NCBI GenBank assembly: GCA_945875435.1
Contig: CAMCKH010000011.1
Location: forward strand, 1 to 36,874
From: an uncultured Erysipelotrichaceae bacterium
GTDB taxonomy: Bacteria > Bacillota_I > Bacilli_A > Erysipelotrichales > Erysipelotrichaceae
Length of the DNA stretch: 36,874 bases
Direction of reading: 5' to 3'
Shown here: one piece after another, positions 3,623-35,867 of the stretch
How the letters are laid out: each line of letters starts with the position of its first letter
Position numbering within the stretch: the stretch's first letter is position 1
Position numbers and translations under genes: made by a program
Notes under the pieces: generated by a model
What the model saw: only the letters and a program-made list of their open reading frames with translations
Told to the model about the DNA's origin: nothing
The model's database searches: none

Positions 3623-4921
3623 GTGAATTTTATAGCTATAAGTATTGTTTTGTTACTACTGCATTTAATTGTTTTTTTAAATTATTTTTTAAGCAAATAT
3701 AAATTAAATAATTATTTTATATTTATAATTTCTATTGTTTTTTACTGTGTATTTTCAATTAATTTCTATGACATTTTAAATATTTTAGCTATTATATTAA
3801 TCACCTATTTTATAGGAAAAATTTTATTTAAAAATAAAAATAAGTTATTAGTTTTTATATATTTATTTTTAGTTGTAGGTAATCTGGCGTTTTTTAAATA
3901 CAATAATTATTTTTTAAAAAATAATTTTATTATGCCACTAGGTATTAGTTTTATAACTTTTCAAGCAATCTCTTATGTGTTAGATATTTTTAATAGTAAA
4001 ATTCACAAGATAAATATTTTTGATTTATCAAGATATCTTTTATTCTTTCCTACTACCTTTCAAGGACCTATTATTCGTTATAATGATTTTATAAGTTTTA
4101 AATATCATAAAGTTAAGTTAGATGATATTTTAGATGGTTATCGTCTTTATATTATTGGTTTTGCTAAAAAGGTGATTATTGCTGATACGCTTATTATTTT
4201 AGCTAACTATACTTTTGCTAACAAAGTTCCTTATTATTTAGCTTTTTTAGGTGCATTAGCTTATATGCTGATGATTTATTATGATTTTAGTGGTTACAGC
4301 GATATGGCTAAAGCAAGTGCTAAAATGATAGGCTATGATATTATGAATAATTTTAATTATCCATATAGTGCTAAAAGCATTACTGATTTTTGGAAGAGAT
4401 GGCATATTTCTTTAAGTTTATGGTTTAAAGATTATGTTTATATAGCTTTAGGCGGTAATAGATGTGGGATTATTAAGAATATTTTTAATTTATTGGTAGT
4501 GTGGTTGATAACAGGAATCTGGCATGGTAGTAAATTTAATTACATTTTATGGGGTTTATATTTTTTTGCGCTTTTGGTAATAGAAAAATATATTTTTAAA
4601 GGCAAAAATAATTATTTTGTTACAATGTTTTTAGTATTTATTTCTTGGATTATTTTTAGAAGCGAAGATCCTTTTTCGTATTTTAAAATGATGTTTGATT
4701 TTAGTGTTTCTTTTAATTTAATTTATTTAAAATTACTAGATGTTTTATATTTATGGCCTATTATAGTTATAGCTTTAATTGGTATTTATCCAACATTTAA
4801 TGAAAAAATATTAAATAGAAATCCATTATTTAAAGATATTTATTTGGTTTTAATTTTAATTATCGGCATTATTTTTTTAATAAATAATAATTTTGAGTTT
4901 TTTAGCTATGTGGGGTTTTGA
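3623..4921 (+). CDS. MBOAT-family membrane O-acyltransferase (AlgI/DltB-like)
   Basis: This 432-residue polytopic protein belongs to the membrane-bound O-acyltransferase family, which moves acyl groups across the membrane onto extracellular polymers. Family landmarks are FFPTTFQGPIIRY (about 141-153), YYDFSGYSDMAKASAKMIG, the conserved DFWKRWHISLSLWFKDYVYI (about 255-274, His261) and GIWHGS with the catalytic-type His301. The start is a GTG preceded by AAGAGG. The stop overlaps the next ATG (TGATG), so it is coupled to the DHHW/SGNH protein, as in AlgI-AlgJ and PatA-PatB pairs. The likely role is O-acetylation of a cell-surface polymer; the polymer is unknown. Confidence 0.9.
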   Translation: MNFIAISIVLLLLHLIVFLNYFLSKYKLNNYFIFIISIVFYCVFSINFYDILNILAIILITYFIGKILFKNKNKLLVFIYLFLVVGNLAFFKYNNYFLKNNFIMPLGISFITFQAISYVLDIFNSKIHKINIFDLSRYLLFFPTTFQGPIIRYNDFISFKYHKVKLDDILDGYRLYIIGFAKKVIIADTLIILANYTFANKVPYYLAFLGALAYMLMIYYDFSGYSDMAKASAKMIGYDIMNNFNYPYSAKSITDFWKRWHISLSLWFKDYVYIALGGNRCGIIKNIFNLLVVWLITGIWHGSKFNYILWGLYFFALLVIEKYIFKGKNNYFVTMFLVFISWIIFRSEDPFSYFKMMFDFSVSFNLIYLKLLDVLYLWPIIVIALIGIYPTFNEKILNRNPLFKDIYLVLILIIGIIFLINNNFEFFSYVGF

Positions 4922-11242: not shown

Positions 11243-11250
11243 TGATAATA

Positions 11251-11284
11251 AAAACACCTAGAATTAAAATTCCAGGTGTTTTCT
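11251..11284. terminator. Bidirectional terminator between the liv operon and the minus-strand island
   Basis: AAAACACCT and AGGTGTTTT pair, with GAATT/AATTC stacked inside after one mismatch. The A-run on one side and T-run on the other let it terminate both the liv operon and the convergent minus-strand genes. Confidence 0.85.
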
Positions 11285-11425
11285 TTAACTCATAAATATG
11301 GAACTAGAGATTTTTATGGCGAGTGTTAAAATTGCTTTGCTTAGAATGTAACTTACAATTATAGATCCTATAATTATGCTTATTTGTAGATTATACTCTT
11401 TAATTAAATTTATTAGTTTTTTCAT
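11285..11425 (-). CDS. 46-residue membrane peptide, paralog of the next one upstream
   Basis: The ATG at 11425 follows the previous stop after one base (TAGTATG) and uses GAGGTAG as ribosome site. The peptide is 46 residues: a basic N-terminus (MKKLINLIKEYN), then LQISIIIGSIIVSYILSKAI as a membrane helix and a polar tail ending IFMS. It aligns end to end with the neighbouring 46-residue peptide (MxKLIxxxKxYxxQISIIxG; ends FM[RS]), so the two arose by tandem duplication. Its function is unknown. Possibilities are a bacteriocin-like peptide, a small membrane toxin or a signalling peptide. The gene ends against the shared terminator. Confidence 0.7.
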   Translation of the reverse strand: MKKLINLIKEYNLQISIIIGSIIVSYILSKAILTLAIKISSSIFMS

Positions 11426-11426
11426 A

Positions 11427-11567
11427 CTACCTCATAAACAATGCATCTTGTATCATTTTTTCTGCAATATTTAACGAATACATAACCGAAAATATTATTA
11501 TTGCGATTCCTACAATGATACTTATTTGAATACTATACTTTTTTAAAAATAATATTAGTTTATTCAT
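11427..11567 (-). CDS. 46-residue membrane peptide, first of a tandem pair
   Basis: The start at 11567 overlaps the last 8 bases of the 159-aa secreted protein gene, indicating translational coupling. The peptide begins MNKLILFLKKYSIQ, has one hydrophobic helix (ISIIVGIAIIIFSVMYSL) and a short tail ending in FMR. It is a clear paralog of the following 46-residue peptide, with the same length, the same QISII core and the same end. No known family is recognised. Two small hydrophobic peptides downstream of a secreted protein and two small membrane proteins resembles a two-peptide bacteriocin locus, but there is no leader or processing site to prove this. Confidence 0.7.
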   Translation of the reverse strand: MNKLILFLKKYSIQISIIVGIAIIIFSVMYSLNIAEKMIQDALFMR

Positions 11568-12039
11568 TTTCTGGATATAACTCATAAATGCCATTAAACA
11601 TTATATCTTTTTGGTAATGCGAGATATTTTTAGTGGTATTTATTAAAGTAAATCCCTCCTTTTCTAATTTTTCGTTAGTTTCTTTATCGTAACTTCTGAT
11701 GTATAAAGTTCCCTGAAAAGTATAGTATAGTTTATCCGTAGGAAATTTATCAGCCCATACGCTATGGCTGGTATTTTTTATTTTTGAAAGCATGGGAATA
11801 TTTGTGAGTCCGACAAACCCGCCTTGATAAGAGTTTATTTGTCTAAATGACCCATTATTATAAAGTTCCACATTCATTCTAAAAGCAATATTAATTCCAC
11901 AAACATCTTTGTTTATTGATATTATATGTGGATATGTATTGTTGTGGGTGTATCTTGGGATAGCGTTTGTATATTTTGGGGTTAAAGTTGAAAATACAAT
12001 TAAAAAACCAAAGATTAAAAATTTTAAATACCTTTTCAT
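11560..12039 (-). CDS. Secreted protein of unknown function (159 aa)
   Basis: AAAGGAGG lies 5 bases before the ATG at 12039. Residues 1-26 form a signal peptide (KRYLKFLIFGFLIVFSTL, probable cleavage after TNA). The mature part, about 133 residues, is polar with one cysteine (DVCGINIAFRMNVELYNNGSF) and looks like a compact beta-rich domain. I do not recognise a family. It sits between a pair of two-helix membrane proteins and a pair of single-helix peptides, all within one minus-strand transcript, so it probably works with them at the cell surface. Confidence 0.75.
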   Translation of the reverse strand: MKRYLKFLIFGFLIVFSTLTPKYTNAIPRYTHNNTYPHIISINKDVCGINIAFRMNVELYNNGSFRQINSYQGGFVGLTNIPMLSKIKNTSHSVWADKFPTDKLYYTFQGTLYIRSYDKETNEKLEKEGFTLINTTKNISHYQKDIMFNGIYELYPENE

Positions 12040-12061
12040 CCAAACCTCCTTTTAAATATAA

Positions 12062-12241
12062 TTAATTATTTTCTTTGCGTTTTCTTCTAGATAAGGAAAC
12101 AAATGTGGTAATAGCTATAGTTAATAAAAAGCGAGTAAGTCTTGACATTTCTATATCTTTAATTACCACCATGTATATTAATATCAAGATTAAAATTATT
12201 GATAGATAATCGTATATATTAAATTTACTAAAGAATTTCAT
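12062..12241 (-). CDS. Small two-helix membrane protein (59 aa), paralog of its neighbour
   Basis: I start at the ATG at 12241 because it aligns with the neighbour's start (MKFFSKFNIYDYL against MKWLNKFTIYDYL); an ATG 12 bases upstream sits too close to AAAGGAG. There are two hydrophobic segments (about 13-29 and 36-50) and a very basic tail (SRRKRKENN). It is a paralog of the 68-residue protein at 12260-12466. Small two-helix proteins with basic tails include bacteriocin immunity proteins, but the sequence does not prove that role. Confidence 0.7.
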   Translation of the reverse strand: MKFFSKFNIYDYLSIILILILIYMVVIKDIEMSRLTRFLLTIAITTFVSLSRRKRKENN

Positions 12242-12259
12242 TTTTATACCCATTCTCCT

Positions 12260-12466
12260 TTAATTATTTTTTCTATGTTTATTTTCTATATTTATTTTTT
12301 TACTATGCTTCCATTCTGATAACATCAAAAGTACTACGATAGTTATTGAGTATAAAGAAGTTAAAAGTACTGAAACTTTTATATCATTAACGATTACATA
12401 TACTCCTATTAAAACAAAAATCAGAAATAGATAATCGTATATAGTAAATTTATTTAACCACTTCAT
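12260..12466 (-). CDS. Small two-helix membrane protein (68 aa)
   Basis: AAGGAGG with 7-base spacing precedes the ATG at 12466. The protein starts MKWLNKFTIYDYLFLIFVLIG, with a second helix at about 33-47 (LTSLYSITIVVLLML) and a basic, Asn-rich tail. The KFxIYDYL element is shared with the next gene, so these are tandem duplicates. It is the first full-size gene after the divergent promoter and 16-codon leader. Its function is unknown; membrane immunity or accessory protein for the downstream small peptides is a guess. Confidence 0.7.
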   Translation of the reverse strand: MKWLNKFTIYDYLFLIFVLIGVYVIVNDIKVSVLLTSLYSITIVVLLMLSEWKHSKKINIENKHRKNN

Positions 12467-12505
12467 TCAACACCCTCCTTAAATATTAAAAACACCTAAA
12501 ACTAA

Positions 12506-12556
12506 CTAATTATCTCCATTCTTATATCTATGGAGATTATAAAGTATAACTTTCAT
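12506..12556 (-). CDS. Possible 16-residue leader peptide with overlapping hairpin
   Basis: AAGGAG with 6-base spacing precedes the ATG at 12556. The open frame is 16 codons (MKVILYNLHRYKNGDN). Its 3' half can fold into a stem (ATCTCCAT with ATGGAGAT, 12512-12537). It is the first ORF of the minus-strand island and may act as a translation-coupled attenuator for the genes behind it. The peptide itself may have no function. Confidence 0.45.
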   Translation of the reverse strand: MKVILYNLHRYKNGDN

Positions 12557-12580
12557 AACAATCTCCTTATTACTACTTAT

Positions 12581-12641
12581 ATTATATAAGTTATATTGAT
12601 TTAATATAAGCCTTATATTAAATATCCATTTATGGTATAAT
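12581..12641. promoter_or_regulatory. Symmetric divergent promoters over a 25-bp palindrome
   Basis: A perfect palindrome with 12-bp arms spans 12599-12623 (half TTTAATATAAG). On the plus strand TTATAT (12613-12618), a 17-base spacer and TATAAT (12636-12641, with extended TG) form a promoter. On the minus strand TTATAT (12609-12604), 17 bases and TATAAT (12586-12581) form its mirror image. A second palindrome, ACTTATAT/ATATAAGT at 12575-12591, covers the minus -10. The two -35 boxes lie inside the palindrome, so one repressor dimer could silence both directions. Confidence 0.65.
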
Positions 12642-12647
12642 ATAATT

Positions 12648-12720
12648 TAGGAGTTTTAAAAACAATATCTTGGTAAGGTTAAGGGTTAAATGAGAATATT
12701 AAGAAATATTCTCATTTTTT
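12648..12720 (+). ncRNA. Candidate small RNA of about 73 nt with a perfect terminator
   Basis: The plus-strand divergent promoter should start transcription near 12648. A 12-bp perfect stem (AATGAGAATATT, loop AAGA, 12689-12716) followed by six T ends it at about 12720. There is an AGGAG near the 5' end but no ATG, GTG or TTG at a usable distance. The product is therefore more likely RNA than peptide. Its target is unknown. Confidence 0.45.
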
Positions 12721-12799: not shown

Positions 12800-13048
12800 A
12801 TTTGTTGGTTTTTAGAACAAAGGTTGTGAGTGAAAGCATATTTAATATTTTTTTTGAAAATATATTTTGCTTTGATAATGTTGATACTAAACTTTTCAAT
12901 GAAATGTTAAAATGATGATTTTTTTAGAATAAAATGATGTTATTAAAAAAACATTCCTCCTTTCAATATTAAATGGATGTTTAATAATAATAATTTTTAT
13001 TTGAACTTTGTAATGTAAAAACAACCTTTGTTCTAAAAGCTAGCAAAT
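12800..13048 (+). ncRNA. Structured leader RNA closed by a 28-bp stem and carrying antisense sequence
   Basis: Positions 12800-12827 pair with 13021-13048: the inner 18 pairs are perfect and the outer 10 include three G-U wobbles and no true mismatch. Wobbles pair only in a plus-strand RNA, so selection on RNA structure is suggested. The 193-nt loop contains 75 nt (12833-12907) exactly complementary to the coding sequence at 13872-13946, and an anti-Shine-Dalgarno-like CCTCCTTTC (12957-12965). It may be a leader or a separate RNA controlling the downstream gene. I do not recognise a known RNA family. Confidence 0.55.
12833..12907 (+). repeat. 75-bp perfect inverted repeat, upstream copy
   Basis: This noncoding block is the exact reverse complement of 13872-13946 inside the following gene, 75 of 75 bases without gaps. 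The match ends sharply at both edges. Confidence 0.95.
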
Positions 13049-13164: not shown

Positions 13165-14310
13165 ATGGCACAAAAGATGTATATAGAAAAGAGTGGTGAA
13201 TTTAAAAATATTTATTTTAAAATGTCAGAAGTATATAGTGAAGATTATGAAGAAAAATATATGAGTAATTTAAAACAAAAAGTAGTTTATACGAATTTTG
13301 ATAGTTATGATAAAAGTAAGCTGCAAAAATATTATGAAATTTTTGGAAAAGAAAGTATAAAAAAGGAATATAAATATGTTAAACGTCCAAATTATAGAAA
13401 TAGAGTTGCTTATGAGTTTAAAATTTTGCTTCCTATGAAAAATAAAATCGTTAATGCTGATGAAAAAATTAATGGTTACACTATGAAAGAACTTTTTGAT
13501 GTGTCAAAAAAATTAGTAAAAGAGTTAATAGGCGAAGAAAAAGGCTTAAAAGCAACTAGCTTTTTAGAAACAAATAAGAATATTACTTATGTGAATATTT
13601 TCATATTGGATAGAGAGTATCATTATGTTAATACTTATGCTACTTATTCTAATACATCTTACCAAAATAAAAACACACTTAGTTTTTGTAATAAAAATGA
13701 CCCAGACGCTATTATTGCTTACAAAAAAGGTGATTTAAAAAAAGATAAAAATGGTAATTTGATTAAAGTAGAAAGATATTTTAAAACAACTAAAACAAGA
13801 AGATTTATTCTTTGGGAAAAAAATAGAAGTGCTGTTAGAAATGAATTTGCTAAACTAATTTACCAATGCTTACATTTCATTGAAAAGTTTAGTATCAACA
13901 TTATCAAAGCAAAATATATTTTCAAAAAAAATATTAAATATGCTTTTAATCGTTTTGCTAAAAGAAATATCATCAATATAAATAGAACAATCTCATTAAT
14001 TCAAAATGAATTAAATTTATTAATAGATAATGATATTAAATACTCCTATGATTACAAAAATCCTTATCACATACCTGAACTTATCCCTAATGAATTTCCT
14101 AAAAATTATTTAGATTTATATAATAAATACAAAGATATTTTTAAAACTAATAATTTTATTTTTGATGATACTGAATATAATATTAAATTCACTTGTAGAA
14201 GTGATGTTTTAGAAAAGAATTTAAGGTTGCTTTTAAATGTTTTTTACGAAGATCTACATTTAAAAAAATTAGAAAATGCAGCTAATAAAAATATACTTAA
14301 TTTTGTTTAA
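13165..14310 (+). CDS. Unrecognised 381-aa protein, candidate replication or mobilisation initiator
   Basis: The ATG at 13165 follows GAGAGAGGTAGGATAAGAAA. The protein is basic and Lys/Asn/Tyr-rich with no membrane segment. A central beta-rich stretch (ITYVNIFILDREYHYVNTYATY, about 143-164) resembles the palm of nuclease-like folds, but I see no HUH or other catalytic motif. The C-terminal half is helical. It lies directly upstream of ParA and ParB, where plasmid-type elements often carry their initiator gene; this context is the only reason for the role proposed. Codons for about residues 237-261 (LHFIEKFSINIIKAKYIF region) are duplicated in inverted orientation in the structured leader, suggesting RNA-level self-control. 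Confidence 0.75.
   Translation: MAQKMYIEKSGEFKNIYFKMSEVYSEDYEEKYMSNLKQKVVYTNFDSYDKSKLQKYYEIFGKESIKKEYKYVKRPNYRNRVAYEFKILLPMKNKIVNADEKINGYTMKELFDVSKKLVKELIGEEKGLKATSFLETNKNITYVNIFILDREYHYVNTYATYSNTSYQNKNTLSFCNKNDPDAIIAYKKGDLKKDKNGNLIKVERYFKTTKTRRFILWEKNRSAVRNEFAKLIYQCLHFIEKFSINIIKAKYIFKKNIKYAFNRFAKRNIININRTISLIQNELNLLIDNDIKYSYDYKNPYHIPELIPNEFPKNYLDLYNKYKDIFKTNNFIFDDTEYNIKFTCRSDVLEKNLRLLLNVFYEDLHLKKLENAANKNILNFV
13872..13946 (-). repeat. 75-bp perfect inverted repeat, copy inside the coding sequence
   Basis: This is the coding-strand partner of 12833-12907. It lies entirely within the 381-aa gene, so the coding copy is presumably the original and the leader copy the derivative. Confidence 0.95.
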
Positions 14311-14350
14311 AAAAATTTAATTCATAGTTAGAGAAAGGAGATATGATTAA

Positions 14351-15106
14351 ATGATTTATTCACTTATTAATTTAAAGGGGGGAGTTGGAAAAACTACCAC
14401 TGCTTTAAATATTTCTGCAGGTTTACACAAGAAAGGAAGAAAAGTATTATTGATAGATTTAGATGGGCAATGTAATGCTACTTATCAATTATTGGAAGAT
14501 AAAAAAGAATATTCAATATGTGATGTTATTAATGATATTAATAATTTAGATAAAGCTATCTATCAAACAAATTACGGTTTTGATATTATTCCTGCAAGTT
14601 TTGAACTTTTTAGGTTAGAAAGTCTTACAGTACAAAATGTAGAAGAACCTTATTACAAAAAAATTAAAAAAATTATTTTAAAATTAAAAGATAGATATGA
14701 TGATATTGTAATTGACAATAATCCTAGATTAGAAGCATGGGCGATTAATTCCATTTTTGCAAGTTATCCAAATGGGCAAGTAATTATTCCCATAAAAATA
14801 GATAAATATGCTTTAGATGGTTTTAAAGAAGTTATGAACAAAATAGAAAAAATCAATGATAATTATGAAATTGATGTTAAATGGAAAATTATAATCACAA
14901 TGAAAACTAAAACAAAGATTAATAATGAAATTATTGAAACTTTAAAATCTCAATTAAATGAAAATCAAATTTTTGATACTACAATCAGATACCAAAGCAA
15001 TCCAGTTACTTTATCAACTTTTAATAAAACTTTACTGGTTGATGATTTAAAAAATGGTTTAGGTAAAGATTATCGTGATTTTGTAGATGAATTAATGAAA
15101 GGTTAG
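14351..15106 (+). CDS. parA: ParA-type partition ATPase
   Basis: This 251-residue ATPase of the ParA/Soj/MinD family begins with the deviant Walker A KGGVGKTTT (about 9-17). The LIDLDGQCNAT switch region is at about 35-45, and a Walker B-like region with unusual wording (DIVIDNNPRLEAW) follows. It lacks the N-terminal DNA-binding extension of type Ib plasmid ParAs, so it is the short chromosomal/Soj-like form. With ParB it ensures inheritance of the element. AGAAAGGAGATATGATTAA lies upstream. The stop is followed by a partial copy of the boundary hairpin (GGGGTTCAAATAAACTC). Confidence 0.9.
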   Translation: MIYSLINLKGGVGKTTTALNISAGLHKKGRKVLLIDLDGQCNATYQLLEDKKEYSICDVINDINNLDKAIYQTNYGFDIIPASFELFRLESLTVQNVEEPYYKKIKKIILKLKDRYDDIVIDNNPRLEAWAINSIFASYPNGQVIIPIKIDKYALDGFKEVMNKIEKINDNYEIDVKWKIIITMKTKTKINNEIIETLKSQLNENQIFDTTIRYQSNPVTLSTFNKTLLVDDLKNGLGKDYRDFVDELMKG

Positions 15107-15135
15107 GGGTTCAAATAAACTCTTATGGTTAAAAT

Positions 15136-15288
15136 ATGACTGAAAATATAGAATTATTAAAAAAAATTAAAAAGATAGAAAAAGAAATTTTAGAAAATGA
15201 AAAAAGATTAAAACAATTAAATTTAACATTAAGAATTTTTAAAGGAAAATTAGATAATTACAATAAAGGAGAACTAAAAAATGTTTAA
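15136..15288 (+). CDS. 50-aa coiled-coil protein between parA and parB
   Basis: This is a short open frame from the ATG at 15136 to TAA at 15288, overlapping the parB start by 8 bases. The peptide is almost all helix with heptad-like Lys/Glu/Leu/Ile (ENIELLKKIKKIEKEILEN), i.e. a coiled coil. The ribosome site upstream is weak, but the overlap with parB is the same ATG...TAA pattern seen at other coupled genes here. It could be an accessory partition protein or a translational coupler for ParB. Confidence 0.55.
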   Translation: MTENIELLKKIKKIEKEILENEKRLKQLNLTLRIFKGKLDNYNKGELKNV

Positions 15289-16003
15289 AACAGGACTTGA
15301 AGATGTCTTAAATAAAGGAAGTTTAAAAGAAATTAATCAAAGTAATTTTAAATTTATTGATAAGGAATTAATTATTGAAAATCCATTTAATGCAGATAGA
15401 CAGACAGAAGAAAATATTTTAAAAGTTAAAAATTCTATTTTAGAAAGTGGTTTAATTAACCCCTTAATTGTTGTGGAAAAAGATGGTAAGTATATGATTA
15501 TTAGCGGTCATGCTAGATTTGCAGCTTTACAATCTATCCCTGAATACAATTTTCAAGGAAACAAAAGAAGTAATGAACTTATCCCAGTTCTTATTGATAA
15601 AACAATGAGAAGTAGTTTAGAAAAAGATTTACTAGTTCTTAAAGCTAATGCACAAAAAGAAGAAACACAAAAAGATAAATTAAATAATGTGAAAAAAGCA
15701 CAAGAGATTTACTTAAAATTAAGAGATGAAAAAATTATAACTAATCAAGACAAAGTTAAAAAAAGAGAATGGATAGCACAATCTTTAGGATATAGTGAAA
15801 GTACAGTTCAAAGATATTTAAGTGAAATTAATACCGATGAAAACTCTAAACAAATTAAAGAAATTGATGAATGTACCACGTTATTGAAAAAAATAGATGA
15901 TATTTATAAAAAAATAGATAAAATTTTTCTAAATTTAGAAAATGAAGAAAAAGAATTAATTAAAACATCTTTAGAAACACTGTTGATTAAAATTAAAGGG
16001 TAA
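15281..16003 (+). CDS. parB: ParB-type partition protein
   Basis: This 240-residue ParB/Spo0J-family protein has an N-terminal nuclease-like/CTP-binding domain (about 30-110) with ENPFNADR, SGLINPLIVVEKDGKYMIISGHARFAAL, where GHARFAA stands for the usual GERRxxA. An HTH-type segment follows (REWIAQSLGYSESTVQRYLSEI, about 164-185). The C-terminus is a helical dimerisation region (about 200-240). It binds parS-like sites and is moved by ParA. AAAGGAGAAC precedes the start. No parS-like inverted repeat was recognised. Confidence 0.88.
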   Translation: MFKTGLEDVLNKGSLKEINQSNFKFIDKELIIENPFNADRQTEENILKVKNSILESGLINPLIVVEKDGKYMIISGHARFAALQSIPEYNFQGNKRSNELIPVLIDKTMRSSLEKDLLVLKANAQKEETQKDKLNNVKKAQEIYLKLRDEKIITNQDKVKKREWIAQSLGYSESTVQRYLSEINTDENSKQIKEIDECTTLLKKIDDIYKKIDKIFLNLENEEKELIKTSLETLLIKIKG

Positions 16004-16008
16004 AAAAT

Positions 16009-16485
16009 ATGAGATTCAAAATAAATGAAATTTTAAAAGAAAAAGGTTTAAAGTATAAAGATTTGTATGAAGCTACAGGCATTAATATTATGTTTAATCA
16101 GGATATTACGCTACTTGAAGCAAAAATATTAGCTAATTTTTTAGAATGTAAAATTGATGATTTGATAGAAACAAGACAGACAAAAATTACAAGCGAACAA
16201 AATAAAGATATTCAAAGTATAGAAAAAGAAAAAGTTAAAAGGTTTACAAATTTGTATGATAGAAAAAGAGGATTCTCGAATAAGCAATTAAAAGTTTTAA
16301 TTGAGGTTACTAGATTTGGAACTATTGAGCAATTAGAACTTTTAAGACATAATCATTTGTCGGCTAAAAAAATGATTTTTCTAGCAAAAATGATGTTTAA
16401 CCAAATTCCTAATTCAGTGCTTGAGATATTTATTAAAAATGAATTAAGTGAAGAAGAATTAAAAATACTTGCGAATAATTTATAA
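16009..16485 (+). CDS. HTH (Cro/C1-type) regulatory protein, 158 aa
   Basis: The gene starts 5 bases after parB. Residues about 3-55 look like a Cro/C1-type helix-turn-helix (INEILKEKGLKYKDLYEATGIN, then LLEAKILANFLECKIDDLIE). The remaining 100 residues are charged and helical (KLKVLIEVTRFGTIEQLELLRHNHLSAKKMIFLAKMM) without a recognised domain. As the last gene of the rep-par cluster before a strong terminator, it probably autoregulates the partition operon or helps the partition complex. It is less sure than ParA and ParB because the HTH is short and diverged. Confidence 0.65.
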   Translation: MRFKINEILKEKGLKYKDLYEATGINIMFNQDITLLEAKILANFLECKIDDLIETRQTKITSEQNKDIQSIEKEKVKRFTNLYDRKRGFSNKQLKVLIEVTRFGTIEQLELLRHNHLSAKKMIFLAKMMFNQIPNSVLEIFIKNELSEEELKILANNL

Positions 16486-18583: not shown

Positions 18584-19003
18584 ATGAACATTGAACAAAA
18601 ATTACAGGAATATAAATATCAAGGTTTTGATAATTGTCAAATGAAACAAATCCGCCTAGGATTAGAACAAAACCTTGATGTATCTATCTACGCCAATCCT
18701 GAATTTGATGAATACCAAATGTTCCAAATCCGCGAGGGATTAGAACAAGGATTAGATGTATCAATCTACACAAACCCTAAATATACTCATTGGCAAATGC
18801 AAGAGATCCGTTACGGATTAGAAAAAGGATTAGATGTTTCAATTTATGCAACTCCTAAATTTAGTGATAGTCAAATGCACCAAATCCTCCTAGGGTTAGA
18901 AAAAGGTTTAGATGTATCCTTATACACCAACCCAAAATATCACTGGAGGCAAATGACCCAAATCCGCCTAGGATTAGAACACAATGAAGAAATCAAACTT
19001 TAG
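18584..19003 (+). CDS. QM-repeat protein with five repeats (139 aa)
   Basis: The protein starts MNIEQKLQEYKYQGFD, the head shared by this family, followed by five tandem 26-residue repeats. Each has the pattern QMxxIRxGLExGLDVSIYA then xPKF/Y and a variable triplet. The even spacing and alternating Leu/Ile suggest a helical solenoid for protein binding. Similar repeats occur in hypothetical proteins of Firmicute mobile elements; I cannot assign a named family. It ends in EEIKL, not in the DYEPNI tail, and its stop overlaps the next gene's ribosome site. Confidence 0.8.
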   Translation: MNIEQKLQEYKYQGFDNCQMKQIRLGLEQNLDVSIYANPEFDEYQMFQIREGLEQGLDVSIYTNPKYTHWQMQEIRYGLEKGLDVSIYATPKFSDSQMHQILLGLEKGLDVSLYTNPKYHWRQMTQIRLGLEHNEEIKL

Positions 19004-20842: not shown

Positions 20843-23800
20843 ATGAAAAACATATTTAAAAAATTAATTAAATTATTAATAATACCAATAATAACTATTG
20901 GTATTTTTTCTTTTAATCCAAACATTATTAAAGCAGCTGTTCCTAGCGAATATCAAAGTTGTGCTAGGATAGATGAGTATATAGATGACAAAAGAACTGA
21001 ACACATTTCAAGACCTAACCCTAATTCAGCTAATTTATTACTTGAAGCACAACAATGGAAAAGAGATAATTGTACTGCTTGTACTCCTCATAATAGTTTT
21101 AATGATGAAAACTTAAATATTCCACTTATAGAAAGTGGTTATATTATGCATAGATTTAGTGTTGATGGAAATTTACTATATTGTATAGAGCCAGATACTA
21201 TATACAGAAGTTGTGCTACTTATGAAAAAAGAATATCTCAAGTTGGTGGTGAACAAAAACTGAAAATTGCTAAAATAATGAAAGCCGCAACTGAATTAGG
21301 AGCAAATAATAATACAGATGTTTATTTAGCAGCACAATTATATATTTGGGATATTTTAGGATTACACAGAAATATCTCAGGTATTGATAAAAATTCTATG
21401 AAATCAATGATAGATAACAAAATCAATGAATTAGAACAATCTTTTGCACCTACCTTTAGTCAAGAACATTACGAAGTAGAATTTGAACAAGATTTTATTG
21501 CACAAGGTACAAATGATGTTCTTACAAGAATAGGATATTCTCTTGAAAATTTAACTACAGGATTTTTAAAAAGTGAAATCACAAGTAATAATGTTATTGT
21601 TAATATCAATAAAATCTATCCAGTAATTAAAAAAGTTAAATTAAACCCTCATAACAACATATCTAATTATGAAAGTTCAATCTATGTGAGTACAAGTAGT
21701 CAAGATGTAATGGGTTTTGACCAACCATTAGATAATCTATATTTAGATAAAACAATTAGCTTCAAACACAAAACAGGAAACCTTACAATAACTAAAAAAG
21801 ATGAATATGGTAATACCCAATCAGGTGTAGAATACAAGTTATATTTTGCTTTAGATGATAATACTAAAGGTGAAGAAATTAGAAAAGAAGATAATAGTAG
21901 TTTTGTAACTAATGAAAAAGGTATTATTGAAATTAACGAAACTTTACCTGTAGGAAAATATTTCATAGAAGAAGTTGTAACCACAAATCCTTTGGTGTTA
22001 AATAGTAAACCTTTTTTAGTTGAAATCAAACATAATCAGACATCTTACTTTACACAAGAAAATGATTTAAGGCTTGTTGATGCAGAAGTGTATAAAAATG
22101 ATATAGAAGAACTTAATCATTTGAATGATACTTATTTTAAAGTGTTTGATATTTCAGAAACTTTGAAAGGTAAAGATACTGAAGAAATTATCTTGATTAA
22201 AGTTAATAAAACTTTAGCTTTAGATGATGTTTTTGGTACAAATAATGTAGTTTATGTAAAAGATGATTTACATACTACAAATTATCTAAATATCACAAAT
22301 AACAATATCACTACCATTAAAACAAATAGAATTTCTTTATCGGTGGATGGAAAAGAAAAAGATGTATATATTATTAAAGATGATAGTTCTATAATGAATG
22401 AAGATTTTAAAGTAATTAGTGGTATAAATGTTTTTAATGGAAAAACAGGAAATTACTATTTACAAATTAAAGATAGAAACAATTTTAATTTGTTTAATGA
22501 AAACGTTAAAAGTATAAAATTATATTCAGATATTTCACTAAGTGAAGAAAGTTTAATAAAGGAATATCCTTTAAATGAATTAGCTACTTTAAATCTTACT
22601 GAAATTAAAGAAGAATTACCTGAAACTTTCTATTACAAAGAAATTTCATCTGTAAAAGATAAGGTTCATATTTTAGAACCTGAAAAGGAAGAAAAACATT
22701 ATAATAATGATGATAATTTAGAAAAAATTAAAGAAGTTAAAAAAGAAAAAATAAATTATGTTGAAAATGGTAAATTGTTGATTGAAGATTTACTGCATAG
22801 TAGAAAATATTTAGTGCTAGAACATACGCCTACTCTTAATCATGATAATATAAGTACAGGTTATGTAATAGATACTAACTATCCTATAGATACTATCAAA
22901 ACTAACTTAGATGTATCTAATGAAAAAGGAAAAGGAAATTTAAAAGTTTTAAAATTAGATGAATTTAAGGATAAATTACCTGGAGAAACAACTTTTAATA
23001 TTTATAAAGCTAATCTAAATCCTAATACTAATCCTTATCATTTAAAATTCCAAGATTTAAGCTATGAAGAATTAAAAGGAATTAAAGGAGAATTAAAAGG
23101 AACTTATACTACCAATAATTCAGTACTTGATTTAAAAAATGAATTGGTGTTTGGTTATTATTTCTTAGAGGAAACATCTACTCATCAAAATTATGAAGTA
23201 AATAATACCTTGTATTTATTTGAAATCAAACACAATGAAGAAACTGAACTTGAATTTTTAAATAAAAATAAAGATTATGGTATTAAACTTGATAAGTATG
23301 ATTTAGAAGAAATCACAAAAAAATTAGATGGTGCTAAATATACACTATATGATATTAGTGATAGTTTAGATTTTGATAATGAAAATACTTTATTGGGTAG
23401 CCCGAAAGAATTTACTAACACTGAAACAACTCTTTTAAATGAATACTACAATAAAAATTTTAATAACAACAATACTAATTCTTACAATGAAACTATTTTA
23501 ACTTACGCTAAGACTAATACTGATTTAGACTTAAAGAAAATTGCGAAAGAAGTTAAAAAAGATTTAGATTTAGAATTGCCTGTTTATTTTAAAACCTCTA
23601 ATAATAAAGATTTAACAATCACTACCAACTCAATTATTAATGTGAATAGTACAAATAGAGTTAAAATCCAAGTTTTTGGTGGGAATTTAGAACTTTATAG
23701 TGCAAAGAAAAACAATAAAATCTTACAAAATGATTATTTTAATCCTTACGATTTAGAATTTTTCAAAGACAAAGACGGTAAAGAAAAACTAAATATTAAA

Positions 23801-25414
23801 TCTTTAACTTATGTAGGAACTTTAGATACCAGTATTTTAGGAAAAACTAAATTAGACTATGAATTAATTACTGTTGATAGCACCAAATATAATTTTTCTT
23901 TAGAATACGAAGTTGTTGAAAATAAAGAAAACAAACCTCTATACGATGTTAATAATGATGTTTATTATGTTATGAAAGACGGAGTTAAAGAGGTTGTAGA
24001 CAAAAATACTATTAAAATTACTAAAAAAGAAATTGTGCCTATTATTGTAAGTAATAATAAAGATTTACCAAAATCTTATGTTAATAGTTTATTATTAGAA
24101 TTTACTGTTGATTTTGTTAATAACGATACTATTTTAAAAGATAATGACTTCATAGTGATTAAAGGTTTAAAAGTTAATGAAGCAGTAACTGGTAAGAAAT
24201 ATCTAAACTATATTAATTATCTCAATCACAATTTAAATGTTAATAATGTTAAAGAACTTACTTTATATCATGATAGTGATTTAATAATTCCAGCTGCAAT
24301 AATTAAATTAAATAATGAGGGAAGATTTGATTTAGGAAATTTAAAATTAAATAAGGATAGATTGATTGCTACAAGTGATCAGGCTAGAATTATTAACAAC
24401 AATTTTAGAAAAGAAAAAGATGTAAATAATATCAATAGTGAAAATGCAATAGCTACAAATTATGAATTTAAAGATATTGATGGAAAAAATATTAAAATTA
24501 CATTATTTAAAGATATTGAACTGAACAAAACATTATATTATAAGGATTATAATATTAAAGATAAAGTAAATAGTATTGTTTTAGATCATCAAGAAAGTGG
24601 AACTATTACTTTAGAAAATCTTTTGTATGGTAGAAAATACATTTTAGTAGAAACAGAGCTTCCTAATTCTTACGATTATATTGATACAACCTCAATTTTA
24701 ATAGAAGATGGAAAGGTATATACTGATAGAAATACTAAAACAGAAGATTTAAACATCACAGATTATAACAAGCGTAGAAGAGTTGATGTGGTTGTATATA
24801 AGAGTGATGAAAGTAAAAGTATTAAATTAGATGGAGCTATTTTTGATGTTAATATTATTGAAAAAGATACTAATAACAAAATTGGTTTAGGAAAATATAT
24901 TTCTGGTGGAATTATGCAAAGGTATTTAGATGATAATAATACTCCTCTAATTAACGCAAAAGTGCTAATTTACACTGATGATACTTTCACCAATTTAGTT
25001 AAAACAGCTACCACCGATAAAGATGGATATATTAAAGTTTTAGGTTTGCCGCAAGGAAAATATTTCTTGAAATTAGAAAGATTGTTAAAACCTACATTTA
25101 AACCTAAAGAAATCATAGATGGTAAAGAAATTATTAATATTGCTACTGAAAATGATTATATTGATAAAAATTCATTGCCTAAAGTATTTGATGAAACAAG
25201 AATTGCCTATATTAACAAAGGTATGATTTACCTTCCAGAAATTAAACATAATGATAAGATAGAGCTAATTGAACTAGAAGCTCCGATTGGTTATATTTTG
25301 GATAGAAATTCTTATATTATTGAAACAAATAGTCCTTACGGAATTAATAGAATAGAAAAATTTAGAGAAAATAAGAGTGAAAAACCTCACTTTACAGGAG
25401 TTAGATATGAGTAA
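20843..25414 (+). CDS. Giant thioester-domain/SpaA-like surface adhesin (1523 aa), no sorting signal
   Basis: A signal peptide (about 1-32, ending IIKAAV) leads into a thioester domain: YCIEPD with Cys114 and AAQLYIWDIL with Gln165 match the Cys-Gln pair that forms the reactive bond in TQXA-type adhesins. Several SpaA/Cna_B-like beta domains follow, visible near 312 (GNLTITKKDEYGNTQSGVEY), 697, 812, 1311 and 1370 (TDKDGYIKVLGLPQGKYFLK). Such adhesins attach covalently to host or partner surfaces. It ends PHFTGVRYE with no LPxTG or membrane helix, unlike typical members. The stop overlaps the next ATG by 8 bases, so this end looks genuine. GAAAGGAAACT is the ribosome site. Confidence 0.85.
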   Translation: MKNIFKKLIKLLIIPIITIGIFSFNPNIIKAAVPSEYQSCARIDEYIDDKRTEHISRPNPNSANLLLEAQQWKRDNCTACTPHNSFNDENLNIPLIESGYIMHRFSVDGNLLYCIEPDTIYRSCATYEKRISQVGGEQKLKIAKIMKAATELGANNNTDVYLAAQLYIWDILGLHRNISGIDKNSMKSMIDNKINELEQSFAPTFSQEHYEVEFEQDFIAQGTNDVLTRIGYSLENLTTGFLKSEITSNNVIVNINKIYPVIKKVKLNPHNNISNYESSIYVSTSSQDVMGFDQPLDNLYLDKTISFKHKTGNLTITKKDEYGNTQSGVEYKLYFALDDNTKGEEIRKEDNSSFVTNEKGIIEINETLPVGKYFIEEVVTTNPLVLNSKPFLVEIKHNQTSYFTQENDLRLVDAEVYKNDIEELNHLNDTYFKVFDISETLKGKDTEEIILIKVNKTLALDDVFGTNNVVYVKDDLHTTNYLNITNNNITTIKTNRISLSVDGKEKDVYIIKDDSSIMNEDFKVISGINVFNGKTGNYYLQIKDRNNFNLFNENVKSIKLYSDISLSEESLIKEYPLNELATLNLTEIKEELPETFYYKEISSVKDKVHILEPEKEEKHYNNDDNLEKIKEVKKEKINYVENGKLLIEDLLHSRKYLVLEHTPTLNHDNISTGYVIDTNYPIDTIKTNLDVSNEKGKGNLKVLKLDEFKDKLPGETTFNIYKANLNPNTNPYHLKFQDLSYEELKGIKGELKGTYTTNNSVLDLKNELVFGYYFLEETSTHQNYEVNNTLYLFEIKHNEETELEFLNKNKDYGIKLDKYDLEEITKKLDGAKYTLYDISDSLDFDNENTLLGSPKEFTNTETTLLNEYYNKNFNNNNTNSYNETILTYAKTNTDLDLKKIAKEVKKDLDLELPVYFKTSNNKDLTITTNSIINVNSTNRVKIQVFGGNLELYSAKKNNKILQNDYFNPYDLEFFKDKDGKEKLNIKSLTYVGTLDTSILGKTKLDYELITVDSTKYNFSLEYEVVENKENKPLYDVNNDVYYVMKDGVKEVVDKNTIKITKKEIVPIIVSNNKDLPKSYVNSLLLEFTVDFVNNDTILKDNDFIVIKGLKVNEAVTGKKYLNYINYLNHNLNVNNVKELTLYHDSDLIIPAAIIKLNNEGRFDLGNLKLNKDRLIATSDQARIINNNFRKEKDVNNINSENAIATNYEFKDIDGKNIKITLFKDIELNKTLYYKDYNIKDKVNSIVLDHQESGTITLENLLYGRKYILVETELPNSYDYIDTTSILIEDGKVYTDRNTKTEDLNITDYNKRRRVDVVVYKSDESKSIKLDGAIFDVNIIEKDTNNKIGLGKYISGGIMQRYLDDNNTPLINAKVLIYTDDTFTNLVKTATTDKDGYIKVLGLPQGKYFLKLERLLKPTFKPKEIIDGKEIINIATENDYIDKNSLPKVFDETRIAYINKGMIYLPEIKHNDKIELIELEAPIGYILDRNSYIIETNSPYGINRIEKFRENKSEKPHFTGVRYE

Positions 25415-27271: not shown

Positions 27272-27395
27272 GAGTTCATTCGGACTCCAACCAAGACAAT
27301 GCATATTGTCTTTTTTTTAAAGAAAGGAAACAAAAAAATGAATATAGAACAAAAATTAAAAGAATATAATATAAAATTAGAAGATTTTAATCCTC
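26933..27395 (+). repeat. Long direct duplication, copy A
   Basis: This segment recurs at 33954-34416 with constant offset 7021 and only a few differences. It spans the coiled-coil end, boundary cassette and start of the next QM-repeat gene. Confidence 0.92.
27250..27337 (+). repeat. Gene-boundary cassette, copy 4
   Basis: DYEPNI codons and stop are followed by GGAGT/ACTCC hairpin (27271-27288), AAGACAA/TTGTCTT (27293-27312) with T-run, GAAAGGAAAC and ATG at 27338. Confidence 0.92.
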
Positions 27396-28147
27396 TGCAA
27401 ATGGAACAAATTCGATATGGATTAGCTCAAGGACTAGACGTTAGTATCTACGCAAAACCTGAATTTAACGTTAATCAAATGAACCAAATCCGCAAAGGAT
27501 TAGCTCAAGAACTAGACATCAGTGTGTACGCCGACCCAAAATTTGATTGGCTGCAAATGAAACAAATACTCAAAGGCTTAGAACAAGAACTAGACGTGAG
27601 CGTATATGCCAATCCAGAGTTTGATTGGCAGCAAATGCTGCAAATCCGCAAAGGATTAGAGCAAAGACTAGATGTAGATATATACGCTGACACAAAGTTT
27701 AATTCTAACCAAATGCACGAAATCCGCCAAGGATTAGAAGCCGGACTAGATGTAAGTATCTACGCTGACCCAAAATTTGATTGTTACCAAATGCAGCAAA
27801 TCCTCTGGGGATTAGAACAAGGATTAGATGTGAGCGTCTATACTGACACAAGGTTTAATTCTCTGCAAATGAAAGAAATCCGTTTGGATTTAGAGTTCTA
27901 TACTGACCCAAAATATAATCCTGACCAAATGAAACAAATCAGTTTGGGATTATTAAATGGGCTAGACGTTAGTATCTACGCTGACCCAAAATTTGATAGC
28001 TATCAAATGAACCAAATCCGCCAAGGATTAGAGCAAGGATTAGATGTGAGTGTCTATATTGATCCAAAATTTGATTGGGAACAAATGCAACAAATCCGTT
28101 TGGATTTAGAAAAAGAAAAACAAGAGAATTTTGAACTAAACATCTAG
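27338..28147 (+). CDS. QM-repeat protein with ten repeats (269 aa)
   Basis: The start is the ATG at 27338, after the cassette's GAAAGGAAAC. The head MNIEQKLKEYNIKLEDF is shared with sister genes, then ten repeats of 26 residues (QMxxIRxGLExGLDVSIYA). The seventh is short by about nine residues (LDLEFYTDPKY). Repeat-to-repeat differences cluster just before QM, as expected of a solenoid with a variable binding face. It ends EKQENFELNI, a diverged form of the shared tail. Its function is unknown; protein-protein binding is the natural guess. Confidence 0.85.
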   Translation: MNIEQKLKEYNIKLEDFNPLQMEQIRYGLAQGLDVSIYAKPEFNVNQMNQIRKGLAQELDISVYADPKFDWLQMKQILKGLEQELDVSVYANPEFDWQQMLQIRKGLEQRLDVDIYADTKFNSNQMHEIRQGLEAGLDVSIYADPKFDCYQMQQILWGLEQGLDVSVYTDTRFNSLQMKEIRLDLEFYTDPKYNPDQMKQISLGLLNGLDVSIYADPKFDSYQMNQIRQGLEQGLDVSVYIDPKFDWEQMQQIRLDLEKEKQENFELNI

Positions 28148-35460: not shown

Positions 35461-35507
35461 GAAATAATAGATAGAAAAAATAGATGATAGAGAAAGGAAA
35501 CAAAAAA

Positions 35508-35867
35508 ATGAATATAGAACAAAAATTAAAAGAATATAAACTAAAATTAGAAGATTTTAATTCTGACCAAATGTATGAAATCCGTTTAGGTTTAGAAAAT
35601 AATGTAGATGTGAATATCTATGCCCACCCAAAATTTTATTGGCAGCAAATGCGACAAATCCGCAAAGGATTAGAAAAAGAACTAGACGTGAGTATCTACG
35701 CCAATCCAAAATTTGATAGCTTTCAAATGGCTCAAATCCGCTTTGGATTAGAAGCCGGACTAGATGTTAGTGTTTACGCCAATCCAAAGTTTGATTGGGA
35801 CCAAATGAACCAAATCCGCAAAGGATTAGAAAAAGAAAAACAAGAAGATTACGAACCAAACATTTAG
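35508..35867 (+). CDS. QM-repeat protein with four repeats (119 aa)
   Basis: The ATG at 35508 follows AGAAAGGAAACAAAAAA. The head MNIEQKLKEYKLKLEDF leads into four repeats of QMxxIRxGLE with GLDVSIYANPKF linkers, and the protein ends EKEKQEDYEPNI. The head and tail are nearly the same as in the 41-residue gene at 34359, so the two differ mainly by repeat number. The function is unknown. Confidence 0.8.
   Translation: MNIEQKLKEYKLKLEDFNSDQMYEIRLGLENNVDVNIYAHPKFYWQQMRQIRKGLEKELDVSIYANPKFDSFQMAQIRFGLEAGLDVSVYANPKFDWDQMNQIRKGLEKEKQEDYEPNI

What the first reader, a model, noticed from the sequence alone, without database searches (positions are those of the whole stretch)
11285..12556. Minus-strand island of tiny proteins built as two paralogous pairs
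In order: 16-codon leader, two related two-helix proteins (68 and 59 aa), a secreted 159-aa protein, and two related 46-aa single-helix peptides, each with a good ribosome site or overlap. Both 46-aa genes were found by reading the strand directly. The composition (paired peptides, paired membrane proteins, one secreted protein) suggests an undescribed antimicrobial or contact-dependent system with immunity.
Basis: partly seen in the sequence, partly recalled or inferred. Interest (0 to 1): 0.65.

Follow-up and report, generated by a model that had tools for sequence, protein, structure and literature searches.

The report
Leader-controlled secreted protein and membrane partners

Summary
The six minus-strand ORFs at 11285-12556 are real and beyond chance, and both paralogous pairs hold up. 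A profile built without S159 finds it at E=2e-12. In 12 of 12 relatives whose flank is present, the next gene on the same strand encodes a small membrane protein (9) or a lipoprotein (3). (2) The 16-codon leader is the best conserved part. Its promoter-leader block occurs four times in this genome, before four unrelated secreted/lipoprotein/small-membrane operons. The peptide core YN[LP]xRYKNG also precedes similar operons in other genera. (3) In 5 of 7 leaders tested, RNA folding pairs the core codons with the next gene's ribosome site, as in a translational attenuator. Best explanation: a leader-controlled regulon of secreted, probably antagonistic proteins with membrane-bound self-protection. 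Here S159 is the likely effector and A68/B59 and/or p1/p2 are protection proteins. The antimicrobial role is inferred; no activity was shown. The two 46-aa peptides have no detectable relatives, so their being the antimicrobials is possible but less likely. New variant of a known kind, with a possibly new leader peptide.

The parts
12557..12645 (-). promoter/operator region with palindromes (CTTATATAATATAAG at 12576-12590; 34-nt imperfect inverted repeat), part of a promoter-leader block repeated four times in the genome
   Evidence: the sequence recurs upstream of the other three leaders; pairwise block identity 129-153 of 151-164 aligned nt
12506..12556 (-). L16 leader peptide MKVILYNLHRYKNGDN, core YN[LP]xRYKNG
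   Evidence: core recurs at C4:6612, C4:45952 and C13:12354 of the same genome and in G014, G043, G119 and twice in G156; Arg codons AGA/AGG/CGG and Gly codons GGA/GGC/GGG/GGT indicate conservation of the peptide
12473..12480 (-). ribosome site of A68, predicted to pair with the leader's AAUCUCC (12532-12538)
   Evidence: pairing probability 0.42 against 0.08 in shuffles, 14/300 as high; 5 of 7 leaders behave alike
12260..12466 (-). A68, two-helix membrane protein, candidate self-protection
   Evidence: no Pfam/NCBIfam family; no relatives in the sampled order
12062..12241 (-). B59, paralogue of A68
11560..12039 (-). S159, secreted protein, candidate effector; corresponds to the C-terminal two thirds of the family profile
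   Evidence: found at E=2e-12 by a profile built from relatives only; family search; no Pfam match
11427..11567 (-). p1, 46-aa one-helix protein, in the slot where relatives carry the membrane-anchored partner
   Evidence: overlaps S159 by 8 nt; paralogue of p2
11285..11425 (-). p2, 46-aa one-helix protein, paralogue of p1
11250..11282 (-). strong terminator hairpin closing the operon, also usable by the convergent CBS-ACT gene
   Evidence: RNA fold z=-6.0; inverted repeat I6
12688..12717 (.). perfect 13-bp stem palindrome upstream, a likely boundary (terminator or operator)
   Evidence: RNA fold z=-7.0

Best explanation
The island is one operon of a regulon. A palindrome-rich promoter drives an mRNA that starts with a short leader peptide (core YN[LP]xRYKNG). 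The leader's core codons contain an anti-ribosome-site sequence (AAUCUCC) that can pair with the ribosome site of the first structural gene; translation or ribosome stalling on the leader would free that site (inferred translational attenuation). The structural genes make S159, a Sec-exported protein of an all-beta family that probably acts on other bacteria, and small membrane proteins (A68/B59 before it, p1/p2 after it, each pair a tandem duplication) that probably protect the producer. Shown: ORFs, paralogy, operon ends, S159 homology, constant membrane-anchored neighbour, repeated and conserved leader. Inferred: transcript, attenuation, toxicity, immunity.
For: S159 homology: a profile of four relatives without S159 finds it at E=2e-12; the 9-row profile finds members in 13 of 272 family genomes. 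Gene next to the secreted gene, same strand: small membrane protein in G103, G155 (two loci), G177, G270, G193, G644, G653, G151; lipoprotein in G146, G156, G290. AgrB plus LytTR regulator plus GHKL kinase beside one relative (G155), LytTR regulator plus kinase-like gene beside another (G146). Leader: four copies in this genome, before A68..p2; a lone 65-aa two-helix protein; a lipoprotein plus secreted C39_2-like protein (Pfam E=1e-7); a 129-aa secreted protein plus membrane proteins resembling ABC permeases. In G014 the order is leader, two-helix protein, secreted 220-aa protein, terminator, as in the window. In G156 two leaders precede two different secreted-protein operons. The core-pattern search gave 8 hits in 4 of 75 genomes against 2 for the reversed control. 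Pairing of the next ribosome site to the leader core: 0.42-0.75 in 5 of 7 leaders, reached by 3-14 of 300 shuffles each.
Against: No member has a known function or recognised toxin domain; fold searches gave no clear match. A68/B59 and p1/p2 show no sequence relation to the partners in relatives and have no relatives of their own. Window leader folds are not more stable overall than shuffles (z -0.7 to -1.3), and 2 of 7 leaders do not show the pairing. Only two other S159-family loci carry the RYKNG leader (L029, L081); four others have different short SD-led ORFs, seen by eye only. Transmembrane helices were judged by hydropathy, not by a dedicated predictor.
Confidence: 0.5

Rival explanations
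1. p1 and p2 are a two-peptide leaderless bacteriocin or helper peptides that form membrane pores, A68/B59 are immunity proteins, and S159 is an accessory exported protein.
For: Paired, short, cationic (+3, +4), one hydrophobic helix each, translationally coupled; leaderless bacteriocins of one to four peptides with membrane immunity proteins are known (PMC8538875).
Against: No relatives of p1/p2 in 288 order genomes, viral contigs or plasmids, whereas S159 has a family. No export gene in the operon. The p1 slot is where relatives carry the membrane-anchored partner.
Confidence: 0.15
2. A non-antagonistic envelope system: S159 is a surface or stress protein and the membrane proteins are its assembly or sensing partners, all induced by translation or envelope stress through the leader.
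For: All-beta fold without a toxin match; the regulon also includes a lipoprotein plus C39_2-like protein operon.
Against: Patchy presence, strong divergence of both secreted protein and partner, agr-type neighbours and a secreted-protein/permease operon under the same leader look more like antagonism and self-protection.
Confidence: 0.25
3. The small hydrophobic proteins are type I-like toxins of a toxin-antitoxin or maintenance module next to the ParA/ParB element.
For: Small one-helix proteins; partition genes lie to the right.
Against: Coupled to a secreted gene and to a regulon leader found at other loci without partition genes in view; no antisense promoter stands out above chance (25 sites against 24.3 expected).
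Confidence: 0.07

Closest known systems
Lactococcin 972 type bacteriocin loci (for example streptococcin B, scbABC)
   Same: Sec-exported beta-rich secreted protein first or early in a small operon with membrane proteins predicted to give immunity (PMC11796350); another operon under the same leader here (C13) has that layout
   Different: S159 and the C13 129-aa protein have no Pfam match, so not Lactococcin_972; partners of S159 are one- or two-helix proteins, not an ABC transporter
Translational attenuators of erm/cat type (own knowledge)
   Same: short leader ORF with a good ribosome site, and alternative pairings that can hide the ribosome site of the next gene
   Different: different leader sequence, controls secreted/small-membrane operons, inducer unknown
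Tandem membrane immunity arrays of Firmicute toxins (TspA-TsaI)
   Same: non-identical paralogous membrane proteins in tandem next to a secreted toxin gene (PMC9484751)
   Different: TsaI is a five-helix DUF443 protein and TspA is a T7SS substrate; here the proteins have one or two helices and the effector has an ordinary signal peptide
TMcin bacteriocins
   Same: secreted small proteins with transmembrane helices in a locus unlike older bacteriocin clusters (PMC12328743)
   Different: TMcin comes from a 297-bp structural gene processed to 5.8 kDa with a disulfide and a DsbA-like gene; none of this is seen here

Membership tests
Lactococcin 972 family | match to the family profile | tested here: not met
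   hmmscan of S159 and of the C13 129-aa protein against Pfam, no family at E<=1
Lactococcin 972 family | predicted ABC-type immunity/transport genes next door | tested here: not met
   none in 11285-12556; present-looking only in the separate C13 operon
DUF5626 secreted proteins (PF18540) | match to the Pfam profile | tested here: not met
   no hit for S159 or four relatives at E<=1; none in 60 class genomes, though the controls were also silent
Secreted effector with adjacent immunity gene (what it works like) | secreted gene constantly followed by a membrane-anchored gene | tested here: met
   12 of 12 relatives with the downstream flank present
Secreted effector with adjacent immunity gene (what it works like) | effector toxic and neighbour protective | not testable with these tools
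   needs experiments
Leaderless two-peptide bacteriocin (p1/p2) | active unmodified peptides without leader | not testable with these tools
   size, charge and pairing are compatible
Leader-peptide translational attenuator | conserved leader ORF whose RNA can hide the next ribosome site | tested here: inconclusive
   leader conserved; pairing favoured in 5 of 7 leaders but overall folds not unusually stable
Leader-peptide translational attenuator | ribosome stalling on the leader induces the operon | not testable with these tools
   needs toeprinting and reporters

The most novel reading that the evidence does not exclude
YN[LP]xRYKNG is a previously undescribed regulatory leader peptide, perhaps ribosome-stalling, that co-ordinates a whole set of unrelated antagonism and self-protection operons in Erysipelotrichaceae, and S159 founds a new family of secreted antibacterial proteins with one- or two-helix immunity proteins.
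Probability: 0.35. Interest if true: 0.8.

Novelty: new variant of a known kind. Interest (0 to 1): 0.62.

Why it matters
A conserved leader peptide shared by several secreted-protein operons would be a handle for finding hidden bacteriocin-like systems in gut and rumen Erysipelotrichaceae, where annotation finds nothing. It would also make a precise question testable: does translation state control bacterial antagonism here. The S159 family plus its constant partner gives a compact effector/immunity pair to test.

Tried and rejected
Pfam, NCBIfam, PHROGs and PADLOC: nothing for the five proteins of the cassette (L16 is too short to scan). Plasmid, phage and viral collections: no relatives. 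Weak A68-like hits L008 and L018 looked like chance when their surroundings were read. PDB profile search: nothing; fold searches: no E<=0.001 match, best VIA-align Z 7.0 to a part of OspA. S159's own model is poor (pLDDT 56); a relative's is better (79). The 23-nt repeat D4 first looked like a cassette-flanking repeat or a long-range pairing with the terminator; rejected as explanation because the upstream copy is simply part of the repeated leader block (same in L095). An RNA-family origin of the leader: no Rfam hit at gathering thresholds. RYKNG in the literature: no paper. Empty-site comparison at the CBS-ACT gene was uninformative: the genes downstream of it differ from the window and from each other in the two relatives read.

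Full report
Observation. The six ORFs are present at the stated coordinates on the minus strand. The strand is far more open than chance: ORFs of 45 aa or more cover 1157 of 1351 nt, against a maximum of 552 in 1000 dinucleotide shuffles. The unit is bounded by a strong terminator hairpin at 11250-11282 and a perfect palindrome at 12688-12717. A68 and B59 are clear paralogues. p1 and p2 are too, on alignment against hydropathy-preserving shuffles (z=5.5) and at DNA level (first 60 nt 77% identical). Both copies of each pair stayed open through 62-63 base differences, which a neutral simulation does in only about 3% of trials. This supports translation of the 46-aa frames, though no footprint data exist here.

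The secreted protein. S159 has no Pfam, NCBIfam, PHROGs or PADLOC match. A whole-genome search of its order gave four weak relatives. A profile made from those four alone, without S159, found S159 at E=2e-12, so the relation is real. A nine-member profile finds the family in 13 of 272 genomes of its taxonomic family, a patchy spread. Named relatives are Erysipelotrichaceae metagenome assemblies, two of them with RUG isolate names. The proteins have a signal peptide and a beta-rich domain with GSFRQ, FPT and L..(A)GF motifs. S159 lacks the N-terminal third (profile match 69-197 of 198). A model of the G103 relative is all-beta with pLDDT 79 and matches no solved fold clearly.

Its neighbours. 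In all 12 relatives whose downstream flank is present, the next gene on the same strand encodes a membrane-anchored protein: nine small proteins of about 70-86 aa with one or (mostly) two hydrophobic helices, and three lipoproteins. In G103 and G177 the unit read in detail is just these two genes. One relative lies beside AgrB, a LytTR regulator and a GHKL kinase; another beside a LytTR regulator and a gene of kinase size without a Pfam match. In the window the same slot holds p1 and p2, overlapping S159, and the two-helix pair A68/B59 lies upstream. None of these four is related in sequence to the partners elsewhere, so they are equivalent in position and type only. In one assembly a member is interrupted by a frame break (L049); it was searched as found.

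The leader. The 16-codon leader MKVILYNLHRYKNGDN turned out to be the most conserved element. The core YNxxRYKNG is present upstream of the S159-family genes in G156 (L029) and G119 (L081). A degenerate pattern for it hits 8 places in 4 of 75 family genomes, against 2 for the reversed control. Four of the eight are in this genome and share the promoter palindromes as well (129-153 identities over 151-164 aligned nt). They precede the window operon; a lone 65-aa two-helix protein followed by a hairpin; a lipoprotein plus a secreted C39_2-like protein; and a 129-aa secreted protein followed by membrane proteins resembling ABC permeases. In G014 the leader is followed by a two-helix protein, a secreted protein and a terminator, the same order as in the window; no family match links the proteins. 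G156 has a second leader before a 126-aa secreted protein and an ABC transporter locus. Two hits (G018, G043:C15) were not examined and may be chance. Codon changes in the core are synonymous at Arg, Gly, Asn and Tyr, including AGA to CGG, so the peptide itself seems to be selected.

How it may work. In 5 of 7 leaders the next gene's ribosome site pairs preferentially with the leader's Asn-Leu/Pro codons (AAUCUCC or AAUCCUU), with probability 0.42-0.75 against 0.08-0.13 in shuffles. In the window the same AAUCUCC can also pair with the leader's own ribosome site or with a later GGAGAU in the leader, giving mutually exclusive forms (sequence). Ribosomes stalled on or finishing the leader would change which form exists. 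This is the logic of translational attenuators (own knowledge). It is inferred: the total fold energies are not unusual, and two leaders do not show the pairing.

Interpretation. Secreted proteins with constant membrane-anchored neighbours, tandem duplication of small membrane proteins, agr-type regulators near some relatives, and a shared leader over several such operons together fit bacterial antagonism with self-protection best (confidence 0.5). Tandem membrane immunity paralogues beside a secreted toxin have precedent in TspA-TsaI (PMC9484751). An envelope or stress role remains open (0.25), as do p1/p2 as the antimicrobial peptides (0.15).

Novelty. No member of the S159 family, and no RYKNG leader, was found in the family libraries or in the searched papers. 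As a kind, secreted effector plus small membrane partner is known; the proteins and the shared leader appear new. I therefore rate it a new variant of a known kind, with a 0.35 chance that the leader is a new class of regulatory peptide.

Noticed in passing
window 13165-16485: ORF 13165 (no Pfam or PHROG match), ParA, ParB and an HTH protein follow on the plus strand, so the island borders what looks like a plasmid-like or integrated element; the contig ends with the window.
   Followed up: partly
window 12800-12827 and 13021-13048: 28-nt inverted repeat, 89% complementary, in the intergenic region between the island and ORF 13165.
   Followed up: no
window about 12940-12970, minus strand: A strong ribosome site followed by ATG TTT TTT TAA, a three-codon mini-ORF; its surroundings are partly duplicated (D3).
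   Followed up: no
window 11249-11260 and 12487-12498, minus strand: TAGGTGTTTTTA occurs both in the terminator 3' arm and in the leader block just upstream of A68's ribosome site; chance or reuse.
   Followed up: partly
L046 6010-6035, L078 about 4530-4550, L049 about 1335-1375, L079 about 3905-3945: Other S159-family genes are preceded by different very short ORFs with strong ribosome sites (for example ATG GAC TAA), hinting that leader ORFs are common even without the RYKNG core.
   Followed up: no
window 18584-19003, 27299-28147, 35484-35867: Repeat proteins built from a unit like QMxQIRxGLExGLDVSxYAxPxF occur three times in this contig.
   Followed up: no
window 20843-25414: 1523-aa surface protein with thioester and SpaA-type domains, preceded by an NlpC/P60 protein.
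   Followed up: no
L027 1856-4419: AgrB, LytTR regulator and GHKL kinase genes diverge from the S159-family operon in an Erysipelotrichaceae MAG.
   Followed up: partly
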